Program-made: the position numbers and the translations under genes
In this document: piece after piece, positions 39,966-62,500 of the stretch
Layout of the letters: each line of letters begins with the position of its first letter
How positions within the stretch are numbered: position 1 is the first letter of the stretch
DNA from: Pisaster brevispinus
Taxonomy: Eukaryota; Echinodermata; Asteroidea; Forcipulatida; Asteriidae
Length of the DNA stretch: 64,000 bases
Assembly (NCBI GenBank): GCA_023634235.1
Contig: JAMKCF010000018.1
Span: 5,237,474-5,301,473 of the forward strand
Direction of reading: 5' to 3'
The notes under the pieces: model-generated
What the model was told of the DNA's origin: nothing
Databases searched by the model: none
Seen by the model: the letters and a program-made list of their open reading frames with translations, nothing else

Positions 39966-40814
39966 GTTGATAAAACGAAAAAATTGTTCAATCATAAATT
40001 GATGACATCGATCACGAACACCTTGTTTTTGCAGTAAACAAAAACTGAATGTCTAGTTTGTTTGTTTGTTTGTTAGTTTTTGTTTTGGGTTTTTTTTTTT
40101 TTTTTGCGTCAAAGCCATTTCCCTCCCGAGAGATTTAATCATGTATTACTATAGACTAGTGTTTAAAACGTTTTATTTTTTTAAAACTTGGCAATTTGTT
40201 TTCAGACGAAGAGCATGCAAGAATATGCATGACATTGGAAAAAAAATTCTTGCAACTTTCTAAAGATATTTGTCACATATTTGTATCAGTCGTCCACTGA
40301 CGTTAAAAAGTGCCTCCGGCCTCCGGAAGTTAAATCATAAACACATGACACCAATTTCGTATGTTATTACCGGTAAATATAACAATTTTCTTGCAACTTC
40401 CCGAATATAGGCACTGACGTTAATTAATCCACTGGCTAAAAAATATAGAAAATGCGTCAATTTCTAAATTCTAATGAAATTAAAATAAATTGAAGAACAA
40501 CTTCCTAAATGTAATTGGTTGAGGAAATGTTTTGTATCAGAGTGACTGACGTTAACCATTCCACCGGCATTGGAGGTTGGATACAAGAGCTCAATTTCCT
40601 GATCGTTCCGAGTTTCCATAGCAGGAGCAGGCACGGTTGCTATTGAGATATGAGATAGTGATGCTAATGAAGCTTTCCGTATGATAATAGCTTGATAAAC
40701 TCACTCAACGAGCAGACCTGAGAAATAAAGACAACTGAATTCTTGTGAGAGTTTAAAGAAACTTCTATGACATAAAATATTCAAACTAAAGACACACGCC
40801 ATAAACAAACCACC
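39966..40814. other. Intergenic DNA with short simple repeats
   Basis: A copy of the TTTTTG(T/C)AGTAAACAAAAACTGAATGTCTAGTTT segment also found near 37,805 ends in a TTTG run and a T run at 40,060-40,105. Between 40,290 and 40,570 the motif CACTGACGTTAA recurs with CCTCCGG palindromic pieces. No gene seen. Confidence 0.5.
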
Positions 40815-41516
40815 ATGGATCAATTAGAGAGTCTTGGCACGACTTTGCCAACAATTATCGAAGGAATGAGGAGTAATGAGGATGTTGCAATGGGAGACAG
40901 CCATACTTGCACTAAATTCATCTTAACTCTCTACTGCTTAATCTGCGTTGTTTGTATCACTGGTAACTTAAAACTCGTTGCCATCATACTCCTCCGTGTG
41001 CCGCCCATGATGTCTAATACCAGTGATTTCTTAGTGCATCTGTCCATTGTAGATGTCATGGTTTGTGTTCTGGTCATCCCCTTTTATTTACTGCCAAGAC
41101 CCAAACCCGCTCCGAACCCCGGGTTCTTCGGTGAGTTTTGATGACGAGTGTACACTTCCCCCCTTTTTTCCTTGGTTCTTTGCGATAACGTCAGTCTTGG
41201 GTTTGACCGCGGTAAATTTGGAGCGCTGTATGTAGCCATCGTCTACTCACACAAATACAAGAAACAAGCACATCAAGATCGCTGGGTGTTGGGTTTTTGC
41301 CGCAGTTTCAAAATCTGTATACTTCTTTACGTATGAAGAAGATGAAGTAAGGTGTCAATTTATAGGCTGGTCTAACCGAGGAGCTCAGGCAGCAATTGGT
41401 TTGTACAGTTTCACTGTCAACTTCTTCGCTCCATTCATTGGGATGATTTTTGCGCAACTGAAAGTTATCTCATTGCTCAACAGACAAGTGAAAATGTTAA
41501 CTGCTCAAATAGGTTA
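40815..41516 (+). pseudogene. Rhodopsin-family GPCR pseudogene, TM1-TM5
   Basis: Starts at a good initiation context (CACCATGGAT). Residues 35-60 form TM1 with the family's Gly-Asn (ITGNLKLVAII), and residues about 69-92 form TM2 (FLVHLSIVDVMVCVLVIPF, with Asp at the usual LxxxD place). After a frameshift near 41,135-41,145 the frame continues with a TM3 candidate ending LTAVNLERC, an ERC in place of DRY. A second shift near 41,235 gives YVAIVYSHKYKK, the usual intracellular loop 2 form. A third, near 41,265, gives TM4, a loop-2 cysteine (VRCQF) and TM5 (FTVNFFAPFIGMIF). The frame ends at 41,516 beside a plausible donor (ATAG/GTTAGT). TM6 and TM7 were not found. Three frameshifts argue for a dead gene, although sequencing error is possible. 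The ligand class is not identifiable. Confidence 0.75.
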
Positions 41517-43448
41517 GTTATAAAGATGTGTTTGCGGTCGTCCTCAAAATAGTCGTACAAACATGAATAAAATGTGTTTGTCAGTGGAGGGTATTAACTT
41601 GAGTAAGTGTGAAGTTGTATGGGTAAGTTAAAATTATGAACTTTGGCAAGTGATTACTTTTGTGATAACTGTCCGAAACTTAGTATGCCAATAATTGTTG
41701 AGATATTCATCAAATAGTTTTTATAACGAAACGCACGCATTGGCTAGATGTCAAATTCTTAGTACGTTGAAAAAATGAAGATAAATCTTTGCATCGGAAG
41801 TTTAATGCATCAGTCACACTATTTAGTAAGAACAGAGTGTTCTTGAACATGTGATGGCATTTCCGAGCTGCAAAGACGCCGGTAATGAGTGTTTTTTTTT
41901 TCTCTCCTTCTTTTCTCTTTGTTTTTGTTTGTTTGTTTGTTTTGTTTGTTTTTTTTTTTTTTGGGGGGGGGGGGTTTGGGTTAGATAAAAAGTGGAATAA
42001 TTTCCAAATTTCAAACCGACAGCTCACCAATTATACAGTTCAAACTGCCAGGTCTTGGAAAAATGTCAGACATTTGTTAAACCGAATCAAACTTTTGCAA
42101 AAAAAACGACCCCAGTCATTTTAAAACCAGGCTAACAGGGAGGCAGTAATCATACTTTTGTTAGAACAGTTTATGTTTGTTAAATCTATATTGTAAAGTT
42201 AATGCATCTTTGGATTTCGAAACGTTCACATTCTCGTATTTTCACCGATTGCATTTATACAAAAAACACTTCGTGAAACGTTCACCTCATTCTTGGTGTT
42301 AGTGGACAACAGAAACAATGTCGTTTTTGTCAAGGATTTCGTGCACATTTTGGTTGCAGCACTTAAAATCATTTGTAATGGCGTGGTAATAATGCGTTAT
42401 ATAAATCACTCTTATAAGTGGGCTACTCCTCTACACATTCTACCACGTTTACGTTATTGTGTTCCATGTTAGTATGTGTATATCAAGTCGCAAATTATCT
42501 CCGTTTTCGCATATCTTTTCGACTTTGATTCTATAAAATACTGGAACTCACCTCTCAATTTAATAGAAATCGATGGATAAAATGAAGTCGCTCTCTCTTT
42601 TTTTCAAGAAATTCGCCAGAAACACACCACTGTGTCTGGCAGAGGGATGTTGGCAATTCGTGTGAGAAAAAGAAAGAAAACAAGTTTGTTCATCAAACTT
42701 TCGATTTGTTATTTAAAGGTTGGGTCGTAGATTGCTAAACACTCACACAAATTCATGACCAAAAAAAATTACTTGGTGAGAAGCACTGCAGCTGAACGTA
42801 ACGCAAAATCTGTGGAATAATAGTGCCTGCCTACATAGTGGCACAAGAGTGTAGCTTTGGTTTGTCTAGATATACTTGACTGATTAGTTACCATGAAACT
42901 ATCTCAACTTTAGCGTCGTCGTCATCGACGAAGATGATTTTAACTTAATAAGAAATTACACATTTTCTCTGTAACGTTACAGTTTCTTTTTTTGTTAAAT
43001 TAGTAGTACATTAATGACAATTTAAAATAGCTTTCTTACTGTATTTTTTTTAATGGGATAATAATATAGATGAGGTCATTTTCAGATAGTTACATTTAAT
43101 ATACAACTTACAATGGCCGGGGGAAATAACGAGTTTCGCATAAATATTAATCTTCATTATCACTGACATGCACAAAGTAAAATTCAAACAAGTCAAGTTT
43201 CATATTCTAAAGATGAAACATGTATTTAGAAATGTTGTGATTAACTAAACAAAATTCCAGTAAGGCACGCAGGATATAAACTTTTCTCGTGATGCACTGT
43301 GAAAATAAGGTCTTTCCGAACGCTTGCTGCCGTGTTGTAAAATGGTCCCTACTTGATGTTTAATTATAATAATACGCATGCCTGTAATAAAACCAATACA
43401 ACTGTAAAGTAATTGATAAGTATATGTCTACAAATTTCTGTTTAATGG
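41517..43448. other. Intergenic DNA without recognised gene
   Basis: AT-rich, with a T run and G run at 41,889-41,975. No further exon of the receptor pseudogene and no other coding signal was recognised. Confidence 0.5.
41889..41975. repeat. Simple repeat: T-rich, TTTG units, then G run
   Basis: T and TTTG/TTTGT runs followed by ten consecutive G. Open frames across it on both strands are artefacts of low complexity. Confidence 0.9.
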
Positions 43449-50712: not shown

Positions 50713-50950
50713 TTACGACTTTAGTTTACTTATCAGATCCCCAAGCTCTTTAATGGAAGGCAGGTAGAAATCTGGGACGCGCTTTTGGTCTTCAACGGAG
50801 TTGCTAGCCTGGTTGTGTCTGACCTCCTCAAGGGTTGAGATTCCAGACAAGACAAAGAGCGTCTTCATCCCGCAATTCCTTCCCAGGAGGATATCTGTTC
50901 CGAGGGAGTCGCCCACGATGAGGGCACGTTCGGGGACCACATCTTTATGT
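50713..50950 (-). CDS. Phosphatase exon 8 (HAD motif IV, stop)
   Basis: 238 nt including TAA. It completes Arg233 and encodes HKDVVPERALIVGDSLGTD, with the two motif IV aspartates, then GMKTLFVLSGISTLEEV and the C-terminal VPDFYLPSIKEL, the standard PGP ending. Acceptor CATCAG/AC. Confidence 0.95.
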
Positions 50951-53900
50951 CTGATGGATGGGTATGAAAGGTCAAATAAACAGTCGTTAGAGATATTTTG
51001 TTTAGTTTATGGGTGGTGGGGGAGGGGAAGGGGGGTTTGGTTGTTCAAGGTAGCAGGGATGTGATAGGCTGTTGAAAAAACAAACTGAACAGTGAGCGTA
51101 AAGAGCGAAAGCTTGCGAGCGAGGGCAAAGCTTGCGAGCGAGGGCAAAGCTTGCGAGCTCGAAGCCTACAACTTTTGTTATAAAAGCCCTAATCTGCACT
51201 CTGGGGCATTCTTTTGGGTTTTTTTGTTTTGTTTTTTATGGTCTTAAAAATAAATAAAAATAAAATAAAATAAATAACAACTATCTAAAATTGTATTTTA
51301 CTTTACTTATGGTTGGTACCCGCTGTAGTCACCTCGCTAATAGTGGGCGGAGTCGACATTCATGTAAAAATACTGTGACAGGTTTTTTTTGCTGTTTGAT
51401 CAGCAAGTAGACACTGTAGTAAGCTGAAACTTTCAACGGTGACATTTAACGTAGCTTTCTTGATAATTTTGCCTATACATCAGCATTACCTTGACAAAAA
51501 CCCATCTATGACCCTACCTTTTAGAGAGGGAGTGTGCAATACCCTACGTACCTTTGCTGGATACATTCAAAGAGATATTTGTTGGGTTTACCAACTAGAA
51601 TAGGTTCTCTGAGAGCTGCCGTCTTCACTGCGTTAATTATACATCCAGTTCCTGTAAATACAAAGGGAGTACACCAACTGAGCCTACGTGTACATTGCAT
51701 AATCATGCAAGCTTAATGTAAAATAACACTACGCATCTAAACTGAATCTTTTTCGCCAACATTCATAAGGAAAATGCGCTGTTTGCACCAATCACTTCCC
51801 CCTTTTTTTTTCATCTACTAGAAGTTATTTTCTCTTTTAAAGAGTCTGTAGATATCAATCATTAAAAATAACAATTTTATCAAGACATAAATACTCAAAA
51901 AATACCTCATCTCAGGAGGCACCTGGATTAAAAAAAAACCCAGTATAGACCTTTCTATTCCAACGTCACAGTCCGAGTTTTTGCCAACCAAGGATGGACA
52001 ACTATTGGAAGCCATAAATGCAAAGCAGAAACAGATAGCCACAGTTAGTAACAATGGTACACAAATATTAACAAATAGTGTTGAATTTGTTGGAAACAAA
52101 GCAACCGATCATGGTGTGTATTTCTCTTTCATTGAAAGTTTGCAGAAATGTTGAATTTGGTCACAACATCCGTTAACATCCGGATCTCCTTTATCCCCGG
52201 TCCTGGCGGATTTGTTCATGGAAGAGTTTGAACTAGACACCATTGAAAATGCTGATCTTTGCCCCAACCTCTGGCTCCGCTACGTTGATGACACCTTTGT
52301 AGTTTGGCCCCACAGCAAGACAGCACTTGACCAGTTCCTACAACACCTCAACAACCAGCATCCACTCATCAAGTTCACCATGGAGCAAGAAGAGAACAAC
52401 ACCATCTCCTTCCTAGATGTCCAAGTCACCAGAAGAGCAGATGGGACCCTCGCTCACACCGTACACCGCAAGCCCACACACACCGACCGATATCTACACA
52501 ACTCTTCATTCCATCATCCACGCTTCAAGTCTGCTGTCCGCAACACCTTGGTTCGCCGTGTCTTCAACACCTGTGACCAAGACAGCTTTAAGCAGGAACT
52601 TCACCACATCAAGACATCGCTGCAACTCAACGGGTACAAGACATTCAACTTCAGCCAGCCCAAGCCAAGCCTCCCACCTGAAGACAGATCACAGTTTAAG
52701 GCAACCATCACCCTCCCGTACATCGACCACGCATCACACAAGCGCCAACGTATCTTCAGCCAAGTTCAAGTCAAGACCTTCCACACAGCACCAAACAAGA
52801 TTCAAGCATCTAATCACACACACAAGGACAAGCAAGACACTCAAGCCAAGGCCGGTGTTTACTGCATTCCCTGCAAATGTGGTAAAGTATACATCGGAGA
52901 GACCGGCCGCGACATATCTACCAGGATCAAGGAACATCAAGCACACGGCAGACTAGGACACCTGGACAAATCCACCATCATCAAACATTCACACAAACAA
53001 GCCAAGCTCATCGCACCTGTCAAGTTCTGGCATCAACACAGAGTCAGGGAGGCAATCGAGATAAAGGCACACAACACAGTTCCACAAGACATCGGATTCT
53101 TCATCAACGACATCTGGTCACCACTTCTCAAGCCAACCTTCCCAGCAGCAGCTCACCACAACACTGACACACTCCAGTGCACACACATCCAGCCAGCAAC
53201 CAACTCCCACACTTCACCGACCAAGAACAGCTTGGATACTTCCCGCCCTAATGTGCATCCCTCAAGCGCTACATAAGCAGCATCACCACCGGCAGTCCAG
53301 CATTCTCCTGAAGACGAGCAGAGTAAACTGTTCGAAACTTCGAGACCACACCCGCTCTTTTCAGAGCCAACACACCCTCAAAAGAGGTTTTATACATGGT
53401 TGTACCCGCAAGTTTACTATTTAGTATTTATAGTTACTTCTTATCTGTTAACACGATTGAAAGTTTTGCTAACATTCGGCCGTCCATGCCAACCAGCAGG
53501 GTTTGTTTATCAACAATAGAAAGGTCTTTACAACCCCAGAGATAATGTAAACAAACGCTGTGGGGTAAAGTATTTACACAGCTGCACAGGATGAGGCACA
53601 TTCTTCCTGTTTGTTGGCGTTGATATGAGGATAGATTGTACAAAAAATTTTGCTATTAAATAAAAAAAAAATAATCAGGTATTGCTAACTAATTAGTGAG
53701 CTTATTTTTCATATATTTTGATTATTTACAACAGTCTATGTAGAAGGTGGCCCATTCAGCAAAGCTGATAATTATTTAGCCTTCATTTTACAAAAATACA
53801 TCAACTTGTACAAGAAAATTCATTGACATGACATTAACAAAAGAATGTTCACAAAAAAACAAAACAAAAGGAAGCATGAAACACATGCCTACAAATATAC

Positions 53901-55499
53901 ACCCCCCCCCCCGACTTAAAGTGTTTGATTGGGTGAAGTATAGCACTGATCACCATGGCATCTGGTTTGACAAACGGATAGGTATTGTTTACCTGGTAAA
54001 ACGATACCTGTATCAGCATGCGGTGGGAACTGACAGTCTGCGTTTGTTCCGATGAACGGAACGTTGGGTTTATTCAAGTAACTCACTGCCCTCAGGACCT
54101 TCATGTAGGTGAATTCTCGATCGAAACCGACACAAACAGCGTTTACCTTTTGACAAAGACGGGGAAAAAAGCAGAAAAAAAACAAAAAACTTTGTTTCAT
54201 TGCAAATTAATGATGTCCTCTTACCAGGTTTGACAATGTTTGTCCCTGGGTAATGATTACGGCCGTCCATTTCTGTCGCGATGAAAGGAAATGTTGGATT
54301 GCTAAGGTAACTTGCAGCCTTGAAGATTTTGACATAGCTGATGTGAACGTCGTAACTGACTATGACTGCTCTTACCTATGGAGGGGGGAAAGTAAAAAAA
54401 AAAACAACAACACACAGCACAACAGAGTGTTAAAAACCTTGGCTGTAAAACCTACGTGTCAATTTGTGTAATAAATGTTTTATACAGGACTGGTAGAGCT
54501 GACAAAACATTTGCTGACAGTGTTCATGTTTTATGTGATCAACCATAGACATTAAAAATAAACCTGCGGAAATTTGGGCTTAATCTGTTGTGTGAGTCAG
54601 GAGAAAAAACAGTGAAAACCCATGCACACGTTTCAGCAGAGTTGTCCTTGAACCTGAAACAGTTTTCTCAAATGTGACTTTAGGTTTTAGTATGAACTTT
54701 AAAATTAGGAAACTTTAAGACAAAAATTATACATTGACGTTTTTTTTCATCCTCACCAATCCTGTATAATACCTTCGACCAGAGTGGGCAGTGCATGAGA
54801 GTGAAAGTGTACAACAAGCAGTGGGCAAAGTGCCACATATCCATATTAAGTAATCTGTTAAAAATTAATAAGCGACAGAAACGAATAAACATAGATTTTG
54901 GACCACATACACAGTGCGCTGTGTGTTAGGCCATGTTGGAACTGGTGGCTGTGGCTAAGGCCAGTGCTAAGGGTGTTGCTATGGGCATTCTATACTTAAA
55001 CATATGGTCGTGTGACAATCAAGCTGCAGCCGTAGCCAGAGCTAGTAATTTGGACATGGGCAATGGGCTTGAAAAAAAAAAAATGGACAACCCTCTCAGG
55101 GGACCCTGGTTCAAATCCCATTGGGGGCACTACATGGCTTGGGTTTTCAGTTCCTATGTGTTTGAGTGGGTTTTCCCTGAAATATTTCCCTGGGGTTTTT
55201 CTCCCACACGTAACGTTGAAACTTCTTTCATTGTCTTCTCTTCGTGGTTCTTGGCTAGTAGAGTGATTAAGTTCGCTTTTCTGAGAGTCCTTGGCTTCAC
55301 AACCAGAATAAATAAATGGAATTATAAACTTTCAACCAGTTACTGCATGCGCCCACACTTTCTACAGATGATACGGAGGGAGAGCACCCAAGAGCAGTAA
55401 CTAGGTGAGAGCTTAAAACTCCATGTACAGCCACTGGCCTGCTTTTATCATGATGACCTACCCTCTGAAATCCAGGGCTCAATTTGTATTTATTTATTT

Positions 55500-55530
<31 letters not shown>

Positions 55531-58500
55531 TATTTATCTTTGTTTGTTTGTTTGTTTGTTTGTTTTTTTTGTTTTTTTTTTGGGGGGGGGGGGGGGAAAT
55601 CGGGGTCGATAGCTCAAAAGTTTTACTGGACTAAATTTTAGTTTTTACAAGGCCCGAACCAAAATGAGAGATTTATCTCATTTGTCTTGTGGGTGATTTT
55701 ACACTTTGATACTTAACAGAACTGAAAGGTATTTATTTGTCAGACTCAAAAGTCAAAATTTCAAAATCGTTCTTTTTTTATTTAAAGATATTAAAGAGAG
55801 AAAACACACAACTCCTGGACTTGCCCAATCATAAGTTTACTGCCCCAACACTGAAATCACAGGCCTCAAGTCTGCGGTCTAGTGTCAATTTAAATTTAGC
55901 TTTGCATTATAGCAACCTTATTTACCATCGTTGGAAAGATCTGATCTTTCTCTTTCCAACCATTATAAACTTGAAAATGGAGGGTGAACATGGACACATT
56001 ACAGGAAAGCTCACTTAAAGAAAGAGGCTCAAATGAAACATCCTTTTCATCTGACAGCTCAAACCTGTTATCTCCCTGTAATTCCTTTTCCAAACAGTGA
56101 ACATAATTGGATCATGCACAAACCAGTAGGGTTGCTGACTGCCCCAGGCAGATTAACTGCTCATCCATTAAGTTTTATGACACAAGTAATTCAATGTAAA
56201 CACACCTAATTAGTGAAAAGGTTTTTTGGGGAAACTCGGAAACTCTTTAATCGAGCTTTCCCGTAATGCATAACTACGGCTTTATAACAAATGACCTTCA
56301 TGCTCAGGGTTGAGTTCTAATTTGTGTGTTAGTTTGGGAAACAAAAGTCGCCCATGGAAAAGATGAGGGGGTATGAGAGTGCAGTCGTCAAAAGTCACTC
56401 ATGGTAAGTAAAGAGTTAAAGGTATTACACAGGAAAGGATAAACACAACAAAAAATTGTTAAATTTTAGTCTGAAAGCTTATTGATTATGAATATGAAAT
56501 TCTTACTAGAACCATTTTATCCGTGAAATATTTCACTCAAAAATGAGAAAACTGTATCTGAAAACCTAAAAAAAATGCAGCAGCTAATTTCGGTTGCACA
56601 ATTTTCATCTTGTAAACACATAATGACAAATAAGGACAATGTGGTTACAAGCTGAAAATTGTGCATGGTTTCTCACTATTTTCTCCTGACTCAAACAACC
56701 AATTAAGCCCAAATTTTCACAGGTTTGTTATTTCAGAAAAACATGGTTCTCACTCAAAACATGAACACTGTGACTATTTTGTCAGCTCTACCAATCCTGT
56801 GTAATATCTTTCATATTGGACCCGGTTCAAGTCGGGTCAAGGTTGATAACAGAAAGATTTCATTTACCTCAGGATCCAGGGGTATCTGCAGCCAGTCTGT
56901 CTGAGTCCCCACAACCGGGTCAGGCTGCATCAGTGAAAATATTTAAATAGTAGACATTTTTAAATATATAGGGTGATTGCGGCTTGGCACTGGGGGTCCA
57001 CTCCAAACCTTGTGAGTTGCAATAGAATACTCTAAGGAGTTTGGAGTATGAATGGCCTGTAATTTGTCAGGTTTAGCTCACCCCTGGTTCTATGTAGCTA
57101 TTGTTGTGAAGATTGAGCTCTCCCAGACTGGTTTTCTTCAGGTGGTAGTGCCCTTACATACGCCAACTAATTTTGACAAGGTCCCTCAGGGTTATAATAT
57201 GACAGGCCTGTAAATGGTCAGGTTTAGCTCACTCCGGAGTTCTTCAGGACTGGCCTTCTTCAGGTATTTAGTAGGTACACCTCACTATGTTTAATACATG
57301 TTTGGATCAAAGGACCCTAGTAAATCTCTCTAGTGTGTTAGCATTTTGACAGGCCTGTACATTATCTGTTTTAGCTCACCCCTGGACCAGTGTAGCTGAT
57401 GTTGTGAAGTTTGAGCTCTTCCTCCAGACCCGACTCTCCGATGAGATACACCTTACCCTGGAACTTCAGCGTCTCCTTCAAGTACTGAGCAGCAGCATAG
57501 GCTGTGCAGAATATATCATCCTGAATATTAACAAAAAACATTACGGGAAAGCTCCGTTAAAGAAAGAGTAAAACATCATTTTCATCTGACAATTAACACC
57601 TGTTATCTCCATGTAGTTCCTTTTCCAAACAATGGACTTAATTGAATCATACACCTGTACACAAACCAGTAGTGCTGCTGACTGCCCAGGCAGATTAAGT
57701 GCTCATCCATTAAGTTTCATGACCCAAGTAACTCACCCAAGTAAACACACCCACTCTGTGAAAAGGATGTATAGTTTCCAAGTTTTTGTGGGGAAACTCG
57801 GAAAATCTTTAATGGAGCTTTCCCCGGGAAATCAAACCCCAAAATTTGACACAAGTCAATAGTTATGGTGTTTTCAATATTTCTGAGGTCCAGGGCAAGT
57901 TTTGAGACACTGGACCTGTGTTCTAACAGAAATTTTCCTGAATTTCGAACCTTAGGAAATGTAAACACGTATAGTCTCATGCATACATACCACAGAAACT
58001 TTGCCGAGACCAAAGTCAGTGAACCGCTTTGCGTACTGTATTCTTGACTTTGTGCTGTTGTTGGTGATAAAAAATATCCGCTTTCCCTGAGGAAGGAAAC
58101 ATAATAATGACTGGGCAGTATTAAGTCACAGTCTTCTAATGTTTCAAGTAATTTCAACGCATGAAACGGTGTTCTTGCTAGGAAAATTTGCAAAAATTTC
58201 GGAATGTAAAAACTTTGCCCTTTATATTTTTTACCTACGGTTTCCTTAACTTTAAGAATCAAAGACAGACACTCCCTAATTTTTTACCAATTCTCACAAA
58301 AAATTAATTTTTGCTCTTTTTCAGCATTGTAACGATTATAATAAAAGTCTTTATGTGCATAATTTTGAATGGTCAGACCGTAGGATAGTAAATAACTGTA
58401 TTAAAAATACAAACTCTCACCAATTCTTTCAGCTTCCTCAGTGTCTCTTGCGCTCCTGGGATTGCAGACTTGGCCGTCCAAATCACACCTGGTGCAAAAT

Positions 58501-60309
58501 TATACTATTATGCCTTGACTGGGGTTCTGATCTGGAGTCTCAATCCAGTGGTGTAACTAAGGGAGCATGGTGGGATGGGGGGGGGGGCACACACGTGATG
58601 TCCTGAACACTGTCACTGTCACTGAAACTGTCTTCCTTTTTTATGGACACAAGTACTACGACCAGGAACATGAGGAGTCAGGACTCAATTTCAAACCCAC
58701 ACTCTGCTGATCAGAAACACCAGAGCTTGAGTCCGGTGCTCTTGTCTTAGCCACTCGGCTGGGTCATGCAACTGACGTTTGAGCTACTGGGACAGACTGA
58801 GAAGACTTGAGGATTACTTACATTAAATTATCACAAAAAAGGAAAACAAAATTGACCGACTAACTAAAACTATAAAAAAAGAGGCAAATTTTCCGCTGCT
58901 CGCCACCAATTTATCTCCCTAAGTTCTGGTTAAATTTCACTAAATTATATTCTTACCTATCAAGGAGGGTTTACCGAACATACAGCCAGAAAACAAGCAG
59001 AATTTAACAATTCTAAAGGCTTAAAAAGGTGTCCCAAAATCGCAAGGCTTCGTCTTGCAGTGAGATGAAAACAAACGCCATGTTGTTTTGTTTTCCTGCT
59101 GTGTGTGTCTGTGTAAGTTGTGCAATACTCCAATCAGTCGGTCATCGTTCATGCGCATTGGACAATTCGCTAGGACTTTTTGATTTGTGAAATGGGTAAT
59201 AATCGAAGATGATATTTAGGAGGGAATTTAGAACAACCCACAAAGTACACGTTGAACTTACCTAGGACTCGTACTAATGGAATAATCCAAAATGAAGTTA
59301 CATGTATGAATATTCAGTTTATGCAAGCCTTGGACAAAGCCAGCTTATTTTAATATTCATAAAAATTACATATTCATTAATATGACCTTTGGTGAACCAG
59401 GTATTGGGAGAAAAATGTACGACAAACAAACCGTTCTGAGTGTCAATGCCTCAGAGCCGTGTGGTACAGGCTATGCTCTCTGTTCTCTCTCTTGTTACAG
59501 GTTCGAATCTCCGTAATTACATTGCATTATTTGATTGCTTGCTAGCGTTCATTCCTTCCAGCAAACAAGATACAGGTAGAAACATGGAGGGACAACATGG
59601 AGACTGGGTGAGTGAGGAGACAGGAGAGAAGAAGACAGTGTGGGAAAAAGCGGGGGGTGGGGGGGTTTTCGCCCAAATTTGAGGATTTAACCAAATATCC
59701 CTAGTTTTTAAACCGATCCTCTATGAAAACTATTTATTTTACGTTTTCAAGATTCACCCAATCGATAGAACACATCCTCAGGTATGAACTGGAAAAAACA
59801 AGTTGAAAAAACCTTTTTAAAAACGTCAATAAGGTGGCTGACTGCGGAAATTTTTCCAAAAAAGAAACTATATTTGACTAAACACAGAACACACTACCTA
59901 ACAAACATAAACTACAGCCATGACATCAGTACACTCTGACTCAGTCGGGCATTCATTAACAAAAACATTAAAATCCCTTTAGAAAGTCATGAAAGTGGCA
60001 GTCGGATCTGGAACTGGGATATGGCAATTCATTAGTTCACCACCACCAGGCACTACCGCCCCCCCCCCCTTCACCCCCGATCGAGATTCTTTTCCTCGTT
60101 TGTATACAATTTACAATTCTTAAGTTTTAGTTTATACTATTCTATCACAGCCTGCCCTTGTCATGTTTTTACAAAGTCAAGTGGACCCACACTCTCTCCC
60201 TACATTGTCATGCAATCCTACACTTACCATCGCAATCAAACAAAACCGTGTCAAATGAATCAAAAAACTTTTGGGCACGATCGTCTGTCAGCTCCATGCA
60301 GGCTGCCAT
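50713..60309 (-). CDS. HAD phosphatase of the PGP/PDXP group, complete, with alternative exon 6
   Basis: Exons, 5' to 3' on the minus strand: 60309-60228, 58488-58421, 58086-57991, 57520-57380, 56924-56868, then 54375-54225 (6b) or 54146-53993 (6a), then 51651-51552 and 50950-50713. All junctions are AG/GT and in phase, giving 311 residues with 6a or 310 with 6b (human PGP has 321). HAD motif I is DCDG with nucleophile Asp25 and general acid Asp27. Motif II is TNNST (Thr58). Motif III is GKP (Lys221). Motif IV is GDSLGTD (Asp247, Asp252). Residues from about 83 to 200 form the C2-type cap. Family members are soluble Mg-dependent phosphatases acting on glycerol 3-phosphate, 2-phosphoglycolate or pyridoxal 5'-phosphate. 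The exon 6a form matches PGP best at VGFD and GTNxD. Substrate is inferred. I leave the symbol blank because the PGP/PDXP split may not apply here. Confidence 0.93.
51108..51162. repeat. Minisatellite, about 20-bp unit, 2.5 copies
   Basis: GCGAGGGCAAAGCTTGCGA units inside the intron between exons 7 and 8. Confidence 0.8.
51552..51651 (-). CDS. Phosphatase exon 7 (HAD motif III)
   Basis: 100 nt, entering in phase 1 (completes Gly200) and leaving in phase 2. It encodes TGCIINAVKTAALREPILVG then KPNKYLFECIQQ, with the motif III lysine in GKP. Acceptor TTACAG/GA, donor AAAG/GTACGT. Confidence 0.93.
52179..53276 (+). CDS. Penelope-like reverse transcriptase/GIY-YIG endonuclease, C-terminal part
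   Basis: Partial open frame of 365 codons with no start of its own. It opens with SGSPLSPVLADLFMEEFE, the conserved fingers-palm motif, followed by the catalytic RYVDDTFVVW and ISFLDVQVTR. After a linker come the GIY-YIG nuclease motifs GVYCIPC, CGKVYIGETGRDISTR and KEHQ. The frame ends at a TAA at 53,274-53,276. The N-terminal two thirds of the reverse transcriptase is missing, so it cannot move by itself. The frame is uninterrupted, which suggests a recent insertion. It lies antisense within intron 6 of the phosphatase gene. Confidence 0.93.
   Translation, partial: SGSPLSPVLADLFMEEFELDTIENADLCPNLWLRYVDDTFVVWPHSKTALDQFLQHLNNQHPLIKFTMEQEENNTISFLDVQVTRRADGTLAHTVHRKPTHTDRYLHNSSFHHPRFKSAVRNTLVRRVFNTCDQDSFKQELHHIKTSLQLNGYKTFNFSQPKPSLPPEDRSQFKATITLPYIDHASHKRQRIFSQVQVKTFHTAPNKIQASNHTHKDKQDTQAKAGVYCIPCKCGKVYIGETGRDISTRIKEHQAHGRLGHLDKSTIIKHSHKQAKLIAPVKFWHQHRVREAIEIKAHNTVPQDIGFFINDIWSPLLKPTFPAAAHHNTDTLQCTHIQPATNSHTSPTKNSLDTSRPNVHPSSAT
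52179..53442 (+). mobile_element. 5'-truncated Penelope-like retroelement
   Basis: About 1.26 kb between the two target-site copies. It holds the 3' part of the open frame and a 3' tail of about 165 bp with GTTCGAAACTTCGAG, a feature often seen at Penelope-type ends. It begins exactly in frame after the left target-site copy, so truncation happened at insertion. Confidence 0.85.
53532..53992. other. Intron 6 sequence next to exon 6a, no other feature
   Basis: AT-rich intronic DNA with a C run of about 11 at 53,903-53,913. No further exon was recognised. Confidence 0.5.
53993..54146 (-). CDS. Phosphatase alternative exon 6a
   Basis: 154 nt, entering in phase 0 and leaving in phase 1. It encodes VNAVCVGFDREFTYMK, then IGTNADCQFPPHADTG, closely matching PGP's VRAVVVGFD and VGTNMD stretches. 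Acceptor AAAAG/GTAAAC with a pyrimidine-rich tract, donor CCAG/GTAAAC. It lies 78 nt downstream of 6b. Confidence 0.9.
54225..54375 (-). CDS. Phosphatase alternative exon 6b
   Basis: 151 nt, entering in phase 0 and leaving in phase 1, open throughout. It encodes a cap segment starting VRAVIVSYDVHISYVK and containing ATEMDGRNHYPG. It aligns along its whole length with exon 6a at about 45% identity by eye. Acceptor CCATAG/GTAAGA, donor CCTG/GTAAGA. VSYD replaces VGFD and ATEMD replaces GTNAD. Because the frame and both splice sites are intact, it is likely functional and not a relic. Confidence 0.85.
54477..54776 (-). mobile_element. MITE-like element of the TATTACACAGGA family, copy 1
   Basis: The ends TTTATACAGGACTGG and CCAATCCTGTATAATACC are inverted copies. 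The inner part, TAGAGCTGACAAAA to GTCAGGAGAAAA, is the inverse of 56,680-56,800. Located in the intron between exons 5 and 6b. Confidence 0.65.
54777..55488. other. Intronic DNA with a SINE-like segment
   Basis: At 55,106-55,116 GGTTCAAATCC is a perfect tRNA-type B box, followed by TTTTCCCTG-rich sequence up to about 55,310. The expected A box 50 bp upstream is replaced by an A run at 55,071-55,082. It is probably a SINE fragment, orientation plus. No exon was seen. Confidence 0.4.
55489..55596. repeat. Compound microsatellite (TTTA)n(TTGA)n(TTTG)n, T run, G run
   Basis: Successive four-base repeats followed by T runs and about 14 G, within the intron between exons 5 and 6b. Confidence 0.95.
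55997..56268 (+). mobile_element. MITE-like element of the CATTACGGGAAAGCTC family, copy 1
   Basis: 272 bp. The left end CATTACAGGAAAGCTC and the right end GAGCTTTCCCGTAATG are inverted. A second copy at 57,539 shares the interior (CCTTTTCCAAACA, CAGGCAGATTAA, GCTCATCCATTAAGTTT). Located in the intron between exons 5 and 6b. Confidence 0.8.
56418..56812 (+). mobile_element. MITE-like element of the TATTACACAGGA family, copy 2
   Basis: 395 bp with ends AAAGGTATTACACAGGA and TCCTGTGTAATATCTTT, inverted. It ends 56 bp before the 3' end of exon 5 in genomic order, so it occupies the start of the intron after exon 5. Confidence 0.75.
56868..56924 (-). CDS. Phosphatase exon 5
   Basis: 57 nt, 19 codons, phase 0 at both ends, encoding PDPVVGTQTDWLQIPLDPE. 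The DWL..PL.P pattern precedes VRAVVVGFD in PGP, so its position is as expected. Acceptor ATGCAG/CC, donor GAG/GTAAAT. Confidence 0.9.
57052..57400 (-). repeat. Three tandem copies (about 148 bp) of the exon 4 end, donor and proximal intron
   Basis: The segment CAGGCCTGTA...TTTAGCTCAC recurs near 57,052, 57,200 and 57,349. The last contains the real exon 4 donor. The copy at 57,082-57,133 still carries exon-like sequence readable as LGELNLHNNSYIEPG next to a GTGAGC donor. The middle copy has lost the exon part but keeps the donor-like GTGAGC. Confidence 0.75.
57380..57520 (-). CDS. Phosphatase exon 4 (start of cap domain)
   Basis: 141 nt, 47 codons, phase 0 at both ends. It begins DDIFCTAYAAAQYL, matching the FGTAY stretch of PGP, and ends HNISYTGPG. 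Acceptor ATTCAG/GAT lies only 18 bases from the end of a MITE-like element. Donor GGG/GTGAGC. Partial copies of its 3' end lie downstream in the intron. Confidence 0.92.
57539..57826 (+). mobile_element. MITE-like element of the CATTACGGGAAAGCTC family, copy 2
   Basis: About 288 bp. The left end CATTACGGGAAAGCTC lies 18 bp from the exon 4 acceptor; the right end is GGAGCTTTCCCC. The interior matches copy 1 at 55,997. It must contain the branch point or pyrimidine tract used by exon 4, unless these are unusually close to the acceptor. Confidence 0.8.
57991..58086 (-). CDS. Phosphatase exon 3 (HAD motif II)
   Basis: 96 nt, 32 codons, phase 0 at both ends. It encodes GKRIFFITNNSTKSR with motif II threonine and continues to FGLGKVSV. 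Acceptor CCTCAG/GG, donor GTG/GTATGT. Confidence 0.93.
58421..58488 (-). CDS. Phosphatase exon 2
   Basis: 68 nt. It completes Gly28 and encodes VIWTAKSAIPGAQETLRKLKEL, the stretch after motif I that matches the GVLW...AVPGA...AL pattern of PGP. Acceptor CACCAG/GT, donor TTG/GTGAGA, ending in phase 0. Confidence 0.92.
58490..58766 (-). mobile_element. tRNA-Leu-derived SINE
   Basis: The head at 58,766-58,675 reads on the minus strand as TGACCCAGCCGAGTGGCTAA, then an anticodon-arm-like CCGGACTCAAGCTCTGG (anticodon CAA), then GTGTGGGTTTGAAATTGAGT and CCTGAC. This is tRNA-Leu(CAA) order with a long variable-arm region and a damaged T arm. The body contains ACTTGTGTCC and runs toward exon 2. The 3' end is uncertain. 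Located in intron 1 of the phosphatase gene, same orientation as the gene. Confidence 0.65.
58767..60227. other. Intron 1 remainder
   Basis: No exon recognised. A tRNA-like stretch at about 59,447-59,520 ends in GGTTCGAATCTCC (B box) and may be another SINE head, plus strand. A G run lies at 59,651-59,665 and a C run at 60,058-60,070. Confidence 0.4.
60228..60309 (-). CDS. Phosphatase exon 1 (start, HAD motif I)
   Basis: 82 nt coding, residues 1-27 plus one base. It starts with MAACMELTDD and ends with VLFDCD at the catalytic loop. The donor is G/GTAAGT, splitting the Gly28 codon. This ATG was chosen because it is the only one in frame before the motif with a strong context (CAAGATGG). The length before the nucleophile suits the family. 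Confidence 0.92.
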
Positions 60310-61385: not shown

Positions 61386-62500
61386 TCTCCATTGATTAAG
61401 TCAGCAAAATATCCTGCCGGATACATCAACGCTAACTTGCGCACTGCGTGTGGAAATAGACTACTGGTGGATATTAATTACTGATATGTCCCTTGAATTC
61501 TGCTAGTGTTGCGCTGTTCACAGCAGCTGAGGAGAGTGAGTTCCAGTGTTTAACAGTTGATACGAAGAATGAATCTTTGAAGGCCCTAGCTTTGTGACTG
61601 ACTTGAATGAATTTTTGGTTGTTTCCCCTTGTATCTCTGGTATTAGGCTGAACATAGTTGTGAAGTGGAATGTCGACCAACCCATTTTTCATCTTGTAGA
61701 GCATACATAATTTCTTTTGATTTCTTCTGTTCTGTAGTGTGTCCCATCCCAAGTCATCCAGAAGTTTAGTAACAGTTCCCGCATCCCTTTGGTAGTTTCC
61801 TGTGCAAAATCTAGCTGCTTGACGTTGGACTCTTTCAAGTGAATTAATGATCTGCTTTGTTGAGGGGTCCCATGCAGATGCAGCATATTCTAAGAGTGGT
61901 CTCACTAAGCTCAAATAGGCAGTTGCTTTCACTTCACTGTTACAGCTCCACAAATTCCTGCGGATAACATTCTGTACTCTTTGAGCTTTCTTGATGGACT
62001 CCTGAACATGGATGTTCCAGCTGAGGGTATTAGATATGTGAACACCAAGGTATTTTTGAGATGAGACGCTGTCCAAAACTTGATTGCAAAACTTGTATTC
62101 ATGCTGAGGTGGGTTTCTCTTGCCTATGGTCATGGTGCAGCACTTGCTTGGATTAAAGTTCATTAGCCAAGTGTCTTGCCAGTTTTCCAGGAGCTTCAGG
62201 TCCTTCTGCAAAGTGCTAGTGTCCCCGTTGGTAGGAATTGGGGCGTAAAGCAAGCAGTCATCTGCAAAAAGCCTGATCTGGGAGGTGATGTTGTTTGGCA
62301 GGTCGTTGATGTACAACAAAAACAAAAGTGGACCAGTGACAGTGCCTTGTGGTACACCAGATGTGACGGCTGCTGGGAGTGATGTATGCCCATTATTTAC
62401 GACTTGTTGGGTACGCCCTGTCAGGAAATCCTGAACCCATGTTGATTCTGCAGAGAGTTCCCTGAAAATTTGACAACAGAGTCGCCAATTTTTATTTTAT
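61386..62500 (-). mobile_element. 5'-truncated non-LTR retrotransposon, jockey-superfamily-like
   Basis: It holds the 3' half of a reverse transcriptase frame followed by a short 3' tail with GGAGATGGAGATGGAGGGAGG near 61,362-61,392. No upstream endonuclease domain is present. The 5' limit is uncertain by about 50 bp. Confidence 0.75.
61474..62470 (-). CDS. Non-LTR reverse transcriptase, C-terminal half
   Basis: Open from about 62,470 to a TAA at 61,474. It begins LSAESTWVQDFLTGRTQQV, then SGVPQGTVTGPLLFLLYINDLP, the classic non-LTR motif, then the catalytic LFADDC, the NPSKCCTMTIG and KYLGVHI motifs, the thumb region (RPLLEYAASAWDP) and VQRQAARFC. The C terminus (VKHWNSLS...FKGHISN) is typical of jockey/CR1-type elements. 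The frame is intact where present, but the catalytic N-terminal part and endonuclease are missing. No host gene function is suggested. Confidence 0.92.

What the first reader, a model, noticed from the sequence alone, without database searches (positions are those of the whole stretch)
53993..54375. Tandem duplicated exons 6b/6a in a PGP-type phosphatase, where splice phase demands exactly one
Seen: two adjacent homologous exons, 151 and 154 nt, both open, both with AG/GT borders, both entering in phase 0 and leaving in phase 1. Exon 5 ends in phase 0 and exon 7 needs one extra base. Including both exons adds 305 nt, and skipping both adds none. Either way the frame breaks before HAD motifs III and IV. 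Inference: they are mutually exclusive exons, giving two enzymes of 311 and 310 residues that differ only in about 50 residues of the cap domain. I know of no report of this in this phosphatase family.
Basis: partly seen in the sequence, partly recalled or inferred. Interest (0 to 1): 0.88.

Follow-up and report, generated by a model that had tools for sequence, protein, structure and literature searches.

The report
Swappable cap exon in starfish phosphatase
A starfish gene for a small-molecule phosphatase carries two alternative copies of the exon that builds its substrate-recognition loop, and the same pair is found in other starfish, so one gene probably makes two enzymes that differ in what they act on.

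Summary
On the minus strand an eight-exon PGP-type phosphatase gene (60309 to 50713) has two adjacent homologous exons, 6a (54375-54225, 151 nt) and 6b (54146-53993, 154 nt). Only one at a time gives a full protein (310 or 311 aa); both or neither gives an early stop. Protein records of Patiria miniata and Acanthaster planci hold isoforms X1 (6b type) and X2 (6a type), identical outside this exon. 6a and 6b are separate clades, and 6a is as conserved as the constant part. Exon 6 matches mouse PGP residues 165-214, nearly all of the substrate specificity loop 202-215. The three 6a rows have Glu where 140 of 141 other rows have Asn and one a gap. The 6a-6b intron is 78 nt, its only yTnAy branch-site match 18 nt from the donor, which fits tropomyosin-like steric exclusion. 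Mutually exclusive exons are a known kind; my paper searches found none reported for this enzyme family. Not seen: RNA reads, DNA of relatives, enzyme data, a 6b structure model.

The parts
60228..60309 (-). coding part of exon 1 (start codon; first HAD motif DCDG begins)
   Evidence: gene model with GT-AG borders; no transcript seen
58421..58488 (-). exon 2
57991..58086 (-). exon 3 (FITNNSTK, motif II region)
57380..57520 (-). exon 4
56868..56924 (-). exon 5, ends in phase 0
54225..54375 (-). exon 6a, 151 nt, alternative cap exon with Glu in the loop motif (TEMDGR.HYPGT)
   Evidence: Patiria and Acanthaster isoforms X2 carry the same type
54147..54224 (-). 78-nt intron between 6a and 6b; only yTnAy match has its A 18 nt from the donor and 60 nt from the acceptor; last 43 nt free of other AG
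53993..54146 (-). exon 6b, 154 nt, alternative cap exon of family-typical type (TN.D, FPPH)
   Evidence: Asterias amurensis, Patiria and Acanthaster isoforms X1 carry the same type
51552..51651 (-). exon 7, needs phase 1 (GKP, motif III region)
50713..50950 (-). coding part of exon 8 (GDSLGTD, motif IV region; stop codon)
54365..54375 (-). start of exon 6a (GTAAGAGC), which joined to exon 5 would rebuild a donor-like site GAG|GTAAGAGC (proposed recursive site)
   Evidence: U1 duplex -9.6 kcal/mol, second only to donor 1 (-11.0) among eight native donors; use not tested

Best explanation
Exons 6a and 6b are an old tandem exon duplicate in one starfish gene for a PGP-type, C2-capped HAD phosphatase, spliced mutually exclusively. 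Each fills the same slot: about 50 residues of the cap with the substrate specificity loop. One gene thus makes two proteins with an identical catalytic core and different cap sides of the pocket. Shown: the anatomy and frame constraint in the window, and at protein level both exon types in the window species, Patiria and Acanthaster, with exact isoform pairs in the latter two. Inferred: (i) 6a and 6b are not joined because the 78-nt intron places the branch site too near the 6a donor; products with both or neither are frameshifted and presumably lost to nonsense-mediated decay; (ii) 6b is the family-typical enzyme and 6a, with its altered loop, has a different substrate range.
For: Only single inclusion keeps the frame. 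Isoform pairs in Patiria and Acanthaster, identical outside exon 6, listed with equal contig lengths within each species. 6a and 6b are separate clades; 6a is as conserved as the constant part. Exon 6 matches mouse PGP 165-214, nearly all of the specificity loop 202-215 (PMC9652372, passages), and the cap-side pocket residues of human PDXP (PMC11164532, passages). Glu in 3 of 3 6a rows where 140 of 141 other rows have Asn and one a gap. Patiria 6a isoform modelled at mean pLDDT 95.2, pTM 0.91, TM 0.92 to mouse PGP 7po7. Short intron with distant branch-site candidate and AG-free pyrimidine-rich end, the layout linked with mutually exclusive exons (PMC2991248 and PMC5740500, passages).
Against: No RNA reads seen; that NCBI 'isoform X' models rest on transcripts is recalled, not checked. 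No DNA of relatives, so the short intron and branch site are known in one species only, and the branch site is a consensus match, not mapped. For Asterias amurensis only the 6b form was seen. No substrate data. The 6b structure model was not obtained, so the two loops were not compared in structure.
Confidence: 0.78

Rival explanations
1. The exons are mutually exclusive, but 6a gives a poorly active or regulatory isoform, for instance a dimer partner (the mammalian enzymes dimerise through the cap), rather than an enzyme with another substrate.
For: 6a changes positions that are otherwise nearly fixed in the relatives held (Asn to Glu, loss of the loop Pro). Mouse PGP and PDXP dimerise through their caps (PMC9652372 and PMC11164532, passages).
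Against: The catalytic residues lie outside exon 6 and are shared. 6a is conserved in its own right and is modelled with high confidence, though neither shows activity.
Confidence: 0.25
2. Exclusion is set mainly by recursive splicing: exon 5 joins 6a first, the junction rebuilds a strong donor, and if the exon junction complex does not block it, 6a is removed and exon 5 joins 6b.
For: Rebuilt 5/6a donor -9.6 kcal/mol, against -6.9 for native donor 5 and -8.0 for donor 6a; 5/6b -6.9; six other junctions -0.2 to -4.5. Annotated RS-exons are prevalent in deuterostomes and their fate depends on competition with the downstream donor (PMC6224609, passages).
Against: GT is a common exon start, and the Val-Arg start is also constrained by the protein; conservation at DNA level in other starfish not testable here; a simple base-pairing energy, no splice-site model, was used.
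Confidence: 0.15
3. Both exons are used by unregulated choice, and exclusivity comes only from loss of the frameshifted products.
For: Lengths 151 and 154 make both double inclusion and double skipping non-coding; [quoted passage not shown]
Against: The short intron and distant branch-site candidate suggest a block before translation.
Confidence: 0.2
4. One of the two exons is a dying duplicate without function, or the two forms are separate genes or annotation errors.
For: Within the window species the two exons share only 41% of residues, and 6a departs from near-fixed family positions.
Against: 6a keeps an open frame, splice sites in the window, and 75% identity to two other genera, equal to the constant part. 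The isoforms are identical at 259 of 259 other positions in two species.
Confidence: 0.03

Closest known systems
Mammalian phosphoglycolate/glycerol-3-phosphate phosphatase (PGP) and pyridoxal phosphatase (PDXP, chronophin)
   Same: Same family by PGP_euk cut-off, same fold by model (6a form), same cap position for the specificity loop.
   Different: In mammals the two cap types sit in separate genes (recalled). Here two loops come from one gene by exon choice. 6a has Glu where the relatives held have Asn and human PDXP has Asp.
Engineered PDXP core / PGP cap hybrid (4bkm)
   Same: Exchange of specificity-determining cap on a constant core (PMC9652372, passages).
   Different: That is an artificial whole-cap fusion; here about 50 residues are exchanged by splicing.
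NALCN channel with alternative selectivity-filter exons
   Same: An exon pair swaps the selectivity-determining element, with a charged residue changed, and echinoderms have it (PMC3557258, passages).
   Different: Ion channel, not an enzyme; far older and wider spread than is shown here.
Tropomyosin mutually exclusive exons with distant branch point
   Same: Branch site close to the upstream donor and a long pyrimidine tract (general statement and cited titles in PMC2991248, passages; candidate site here).
   Different: The branch point is mapped there; here it is a consensus match.
PKM and ketohexokinase mutually exclusive exons
   Same: One metabolic gene, two enzyme forms by exon exchange (recalled; search listing only).
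   Different: Different enzymes; recalled as changing regulation or affinity rather than a phosphatase specificity loop.

Membership tests
Mutually exclusive exon cluster | neighbouring exons with compatible splice sites, same phase and similar length | tested here: met
Mutually exclusive exon cluster | exclusive presence in protein isoforms | tested here: met
   met in annotated protein isoforms of Patiria and Acanthaster; not seen for the window species
Mutually exclusive exon cluster | exclusive junctions in RNA | not testable with these tools
   no reads available
Steric-interference subclass | donor to branch point under 50 nt (criterion in PMC5740500, passages) | tested here: inconclusive
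   only yTnAy match 18 nt from donor, a TGA at 28 nt, but one TCA lies 4 nt from the acceptor; no mapped branch point
PGP_euk, HAD-IIA phosphatase | curated profile cut-off | tested here: met
   280.9 and 277.5 bits against 201.95
PGP_euk, HAD-IIA phosphatase | catalytic Asp, Asp, Thr, Lys, Asp, Asp (motif assignment recalled) | tested here: met
   D25, D27, T58, K220, D246, D251 invariant in 17 rows
PGP_euk, HAD-IIA phosphatase | phosphatase activity and substrate | not testable with these tools
   needs purified protein
Chronophin-type specificity for 6a | closer to PDXP than 6b is | tested here: inconclusive
   human PDXP 8s8a 4 bits better with 6a; mouse 8qfw 1.4 to 2.1 bits better with 6b
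RS-exon (recursive splicing) | rebuilt donor at the upstream junction at least as strong as native donors | tested here: met
   5/6a -9.6 kcal/mol, 7 of 8 native donors weaker; by U1 pairing energy only
RS-exon (recursive splicing) | use of the rebuilt donor | not testable with these tools
   needs lariat reads or minigene

The most novel reading that the evidence does not exclude
Starfish evolved a splice-controlled substrate switch in a metabolite-repair phosphatase: the 6a loop, with a conserved Glu at a position where the other relatives held have Asn, gives the same core a new physiological substrate, and the choice between loops is set at the 5/6a junction by a recursive donor together with a steric block in the 78-nt intron.
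Probability: 0.15. Interest if true: 0.78.

Novelty: new member of a known kind. Interest (0 to 1): 0.55.

Why it matters
How the cap of HAD phosphatases dictates substrate has been studied with artificial cap hybrids. Here nature offers a clean pair: two loops on one identical core, kept in at least three starfish genera. That makes the effect of the specificity loop alone directly testable and suggests control by splicing of an enzyme that clears side-products of glycolysis.

Tried and rejected
Chronophin-like reading of 6a: suggested by Tyr at the position of human PDXP Tyr150 (Y in window and Patiria, F in Acanthaster) and a His in the loop. Scores are split: human 8s8a 189.2 against 185.3 (window) and 208.3 against 204.3 (Patiria) in favour of 6a, mouse 8qfw 177.9 against 180.0 and 200.3 against 201.7 in favour of 6b. 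Dropped.

Separate genes instead of isoforms: disfavoured, since the constant parts are identical and contig lengths equal within a species.

Age of the duplication beyond starfish: the tree weakly places 6a beside crinoid and holothurian exons, but one clade of 6a and 6b is not rejected (p-AU 0.30, 51 columns). Left open.

Intron pairing: intron 5 has an inverted repeat that could bring exon 5 near 6a. It looks like a mobile-element remnant (inference) and was not pursued. Rfam gave no match in the window. The 6b structure model was never run because the machine was busy.

Full report
The gene. On the minus strand, 60309 to 50713, an eight-exon coding model with GT-AG borders throughout encodes a phosphatase of the eukaryotic phosphoglycolate/pyridoxal phosphate family. 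No transcript was seen. Both isoforms pass the curated PGP_euk cut-off (280.9 and 277.5 bits against 201.95), and their best solved relative is 7po7, mouse PGP. D25, D27, T58, K220, D246 and D251, which I take from recall as the HAD catalytic residues, are invariant in 17 rows (15 relatives and both isoforms), and none lies in exon 6 (residues 149 to 198 or 199).

The observation. Exon 6a is 54375-54225 (151 nt) and 6b 54146-53993 (154 nt). Both enter in phase 0 and leave in phase 1. One of them gives 310 or 311 residues. Both give a stop inside 6b; neither gives a stop four codons into exon 7. Their likeness is above shuffles (score 94, maximum 52 of 2000), and their differences lean to third codon positions (18, 17, 33; P 0.007).

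Relatives. A search with the 6a part alone found one protein, Patiria miniata isoform X2, 80% identical over 56 residues. A search with the whole 6b isoform listed Asterias amurensis X1 (93%), Patiria X1 and X2, and Acanthaster planci X1 and X2 (120 of 452 hits listed). In Patiria and in Acanthaster the two isoforms are identical at 259 of 259 positions outside exon 6 and part from each other at the borders predicted in the window. For Asterias amurensis only the 6b form was seen; its cluster has two members, of which one is shown.

Conservation. Window 6a is identical to Patiria and to Acanthaster 6a in 38 of 51 columns each (75%); that alignment misplaces one gap, and the tree alignment gives 78% to Acanthaster. 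Window 6b is 73% and 65% identical to their 6b; the constant part is 72% and 73%. Within a species, 6a and 6b share 41 to 49%. In a tree of 27 exon 6 segments, 6a (3 rows, 100/99) and 6b (4 rows, 98/99 as drawn) are each one clade. Grouping by species is rejected for the window with Asterias (p-AU 1.9e-71) and for Patiria (4e-4); the Acanthaster pair was not tested. So the duplication is older than the split of these genera. Whether it is older than starfish is unresolved (p-AU 0.30 for one joint clade). Among the 142 relatives held, only Patiria X2 and Acanthaster X2 have the Glu. Other classes may still hold an unannotated second exon: no brittle star was in the listed rows, the lists were capped, and no genomic DNA of relatives could be read.

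What the exon encodes. By alignment, exon 6 matches mouse PGP residues 165 to about 214. The substrate specificity loop of mouse PGP is 202-215 and its cap 100-237 (PMC9652372, passages). In human PDXP the cap-side residues of the inhibitor pocket, Tyr150, Glu152, His182, Pro183 and Leu184, fall in this stretch, while the core-side residues Asp27, Asn60, Ser61 and Arg62 do not (PMC11164532, passages). The swap therefore changes most of the cap side of the pocket. At the TN.D motif, 3 of 3 6a rows have Glu; of 141 other rows, 140 have Asn and 1 a gap. At the next loop Pro, 140 of 141 others have Pro and 1 a gap, and no 6a row has it in that column (6a has a Pro two or three residues on). The rows are the nearest relatives, not the whole superfamily; human PDXP, outside this set, has Asp at the first position. 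The Patiria 6a isoform is modelled at mean pLDDT 95.2 and pTM 0.91, with residues 181-200 at 88 to 89, and matches mouse PGP 7po7 at TM 0.92. The 6b form was not modelled.

How exclusion may work. The intron between 6a and 6b is 78 nt; the seven others are 334 to 2492 nt. Its only yTnAy match puts the branch A 18 nt from the donor and 60 nt from the acceptor. Weaker TNA triplets lie at 4, 14, 17 and 28 nt and one 4 nt from the acceptor. The last 43 nt have no AG but the acceptor and are rich in pyrimidines. Distant branch points with long pyrimidine tracts have been linked with mutually exclusive exons (PMC2991248, passages). [quoted passage not shown] Both safeguards appear here, the first as a candidate only. 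A further option is recursive splicing: exon 5 joined to 6a rebuilds a donor-like site of -9.6 kcal/mol by U1 pairing, against -6.9 for native donor 5 and -8.0 for donor 6a; 5/6b gives -6.9, 6a/6b -5.3, and six other junctions -0.2 to -4.5. Annotated RS-exons are prevalent in deuterostomes (PMC6224609, passages). This stays a proposal.

Known or new. Mutually exclusive exons are a well known kind. Searches for this enzyme or the superfamily with mutually exclusive exons (none), for PGP with isoforms and alternative splicing (one review listed, not read), for sea star with such exons (none) and for echinoderm exon duplication (six listed, none titled on this enzyme, one opened for passages) gave no report. 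Only open-licence papers were searched. The isoform pairs themselves are in public protein records. It is a new, conserved and functionally suggestive member of a known kind.

Noticed in passing
window 1 to about 36000: Long satellite array with G+C near 0.50 and repeat periods of about 209 and 444 bases, perhaps a 653-base higher unit.
   Followed up: no
52155-53276 (+), inside intron 6b-7: 373-aa open frame with weak reverse transcriptase (below the Pfam cut-off) and GIY-YIG matches, like a Penelope-type element remnant (the type is recalled).
   Followed up: partly
54473-54637 and 56651-56811, inside intron 5: Several inverted-repeat arms, 76 to 91% complementary, between the ends of intron 5; folding could bring exon 5 near exon 6a.
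   Followed up: no
61474-62496 (-): 340-aa open frame that looks by eye like part of a non-LTR reverse transcriptase.
   Followed up: no
40776-41517 (+): Open frames with stretches that look by eye like a G-protein-coupled receptor, perhaps exons of a neighbouring gene.
   Followed up: no
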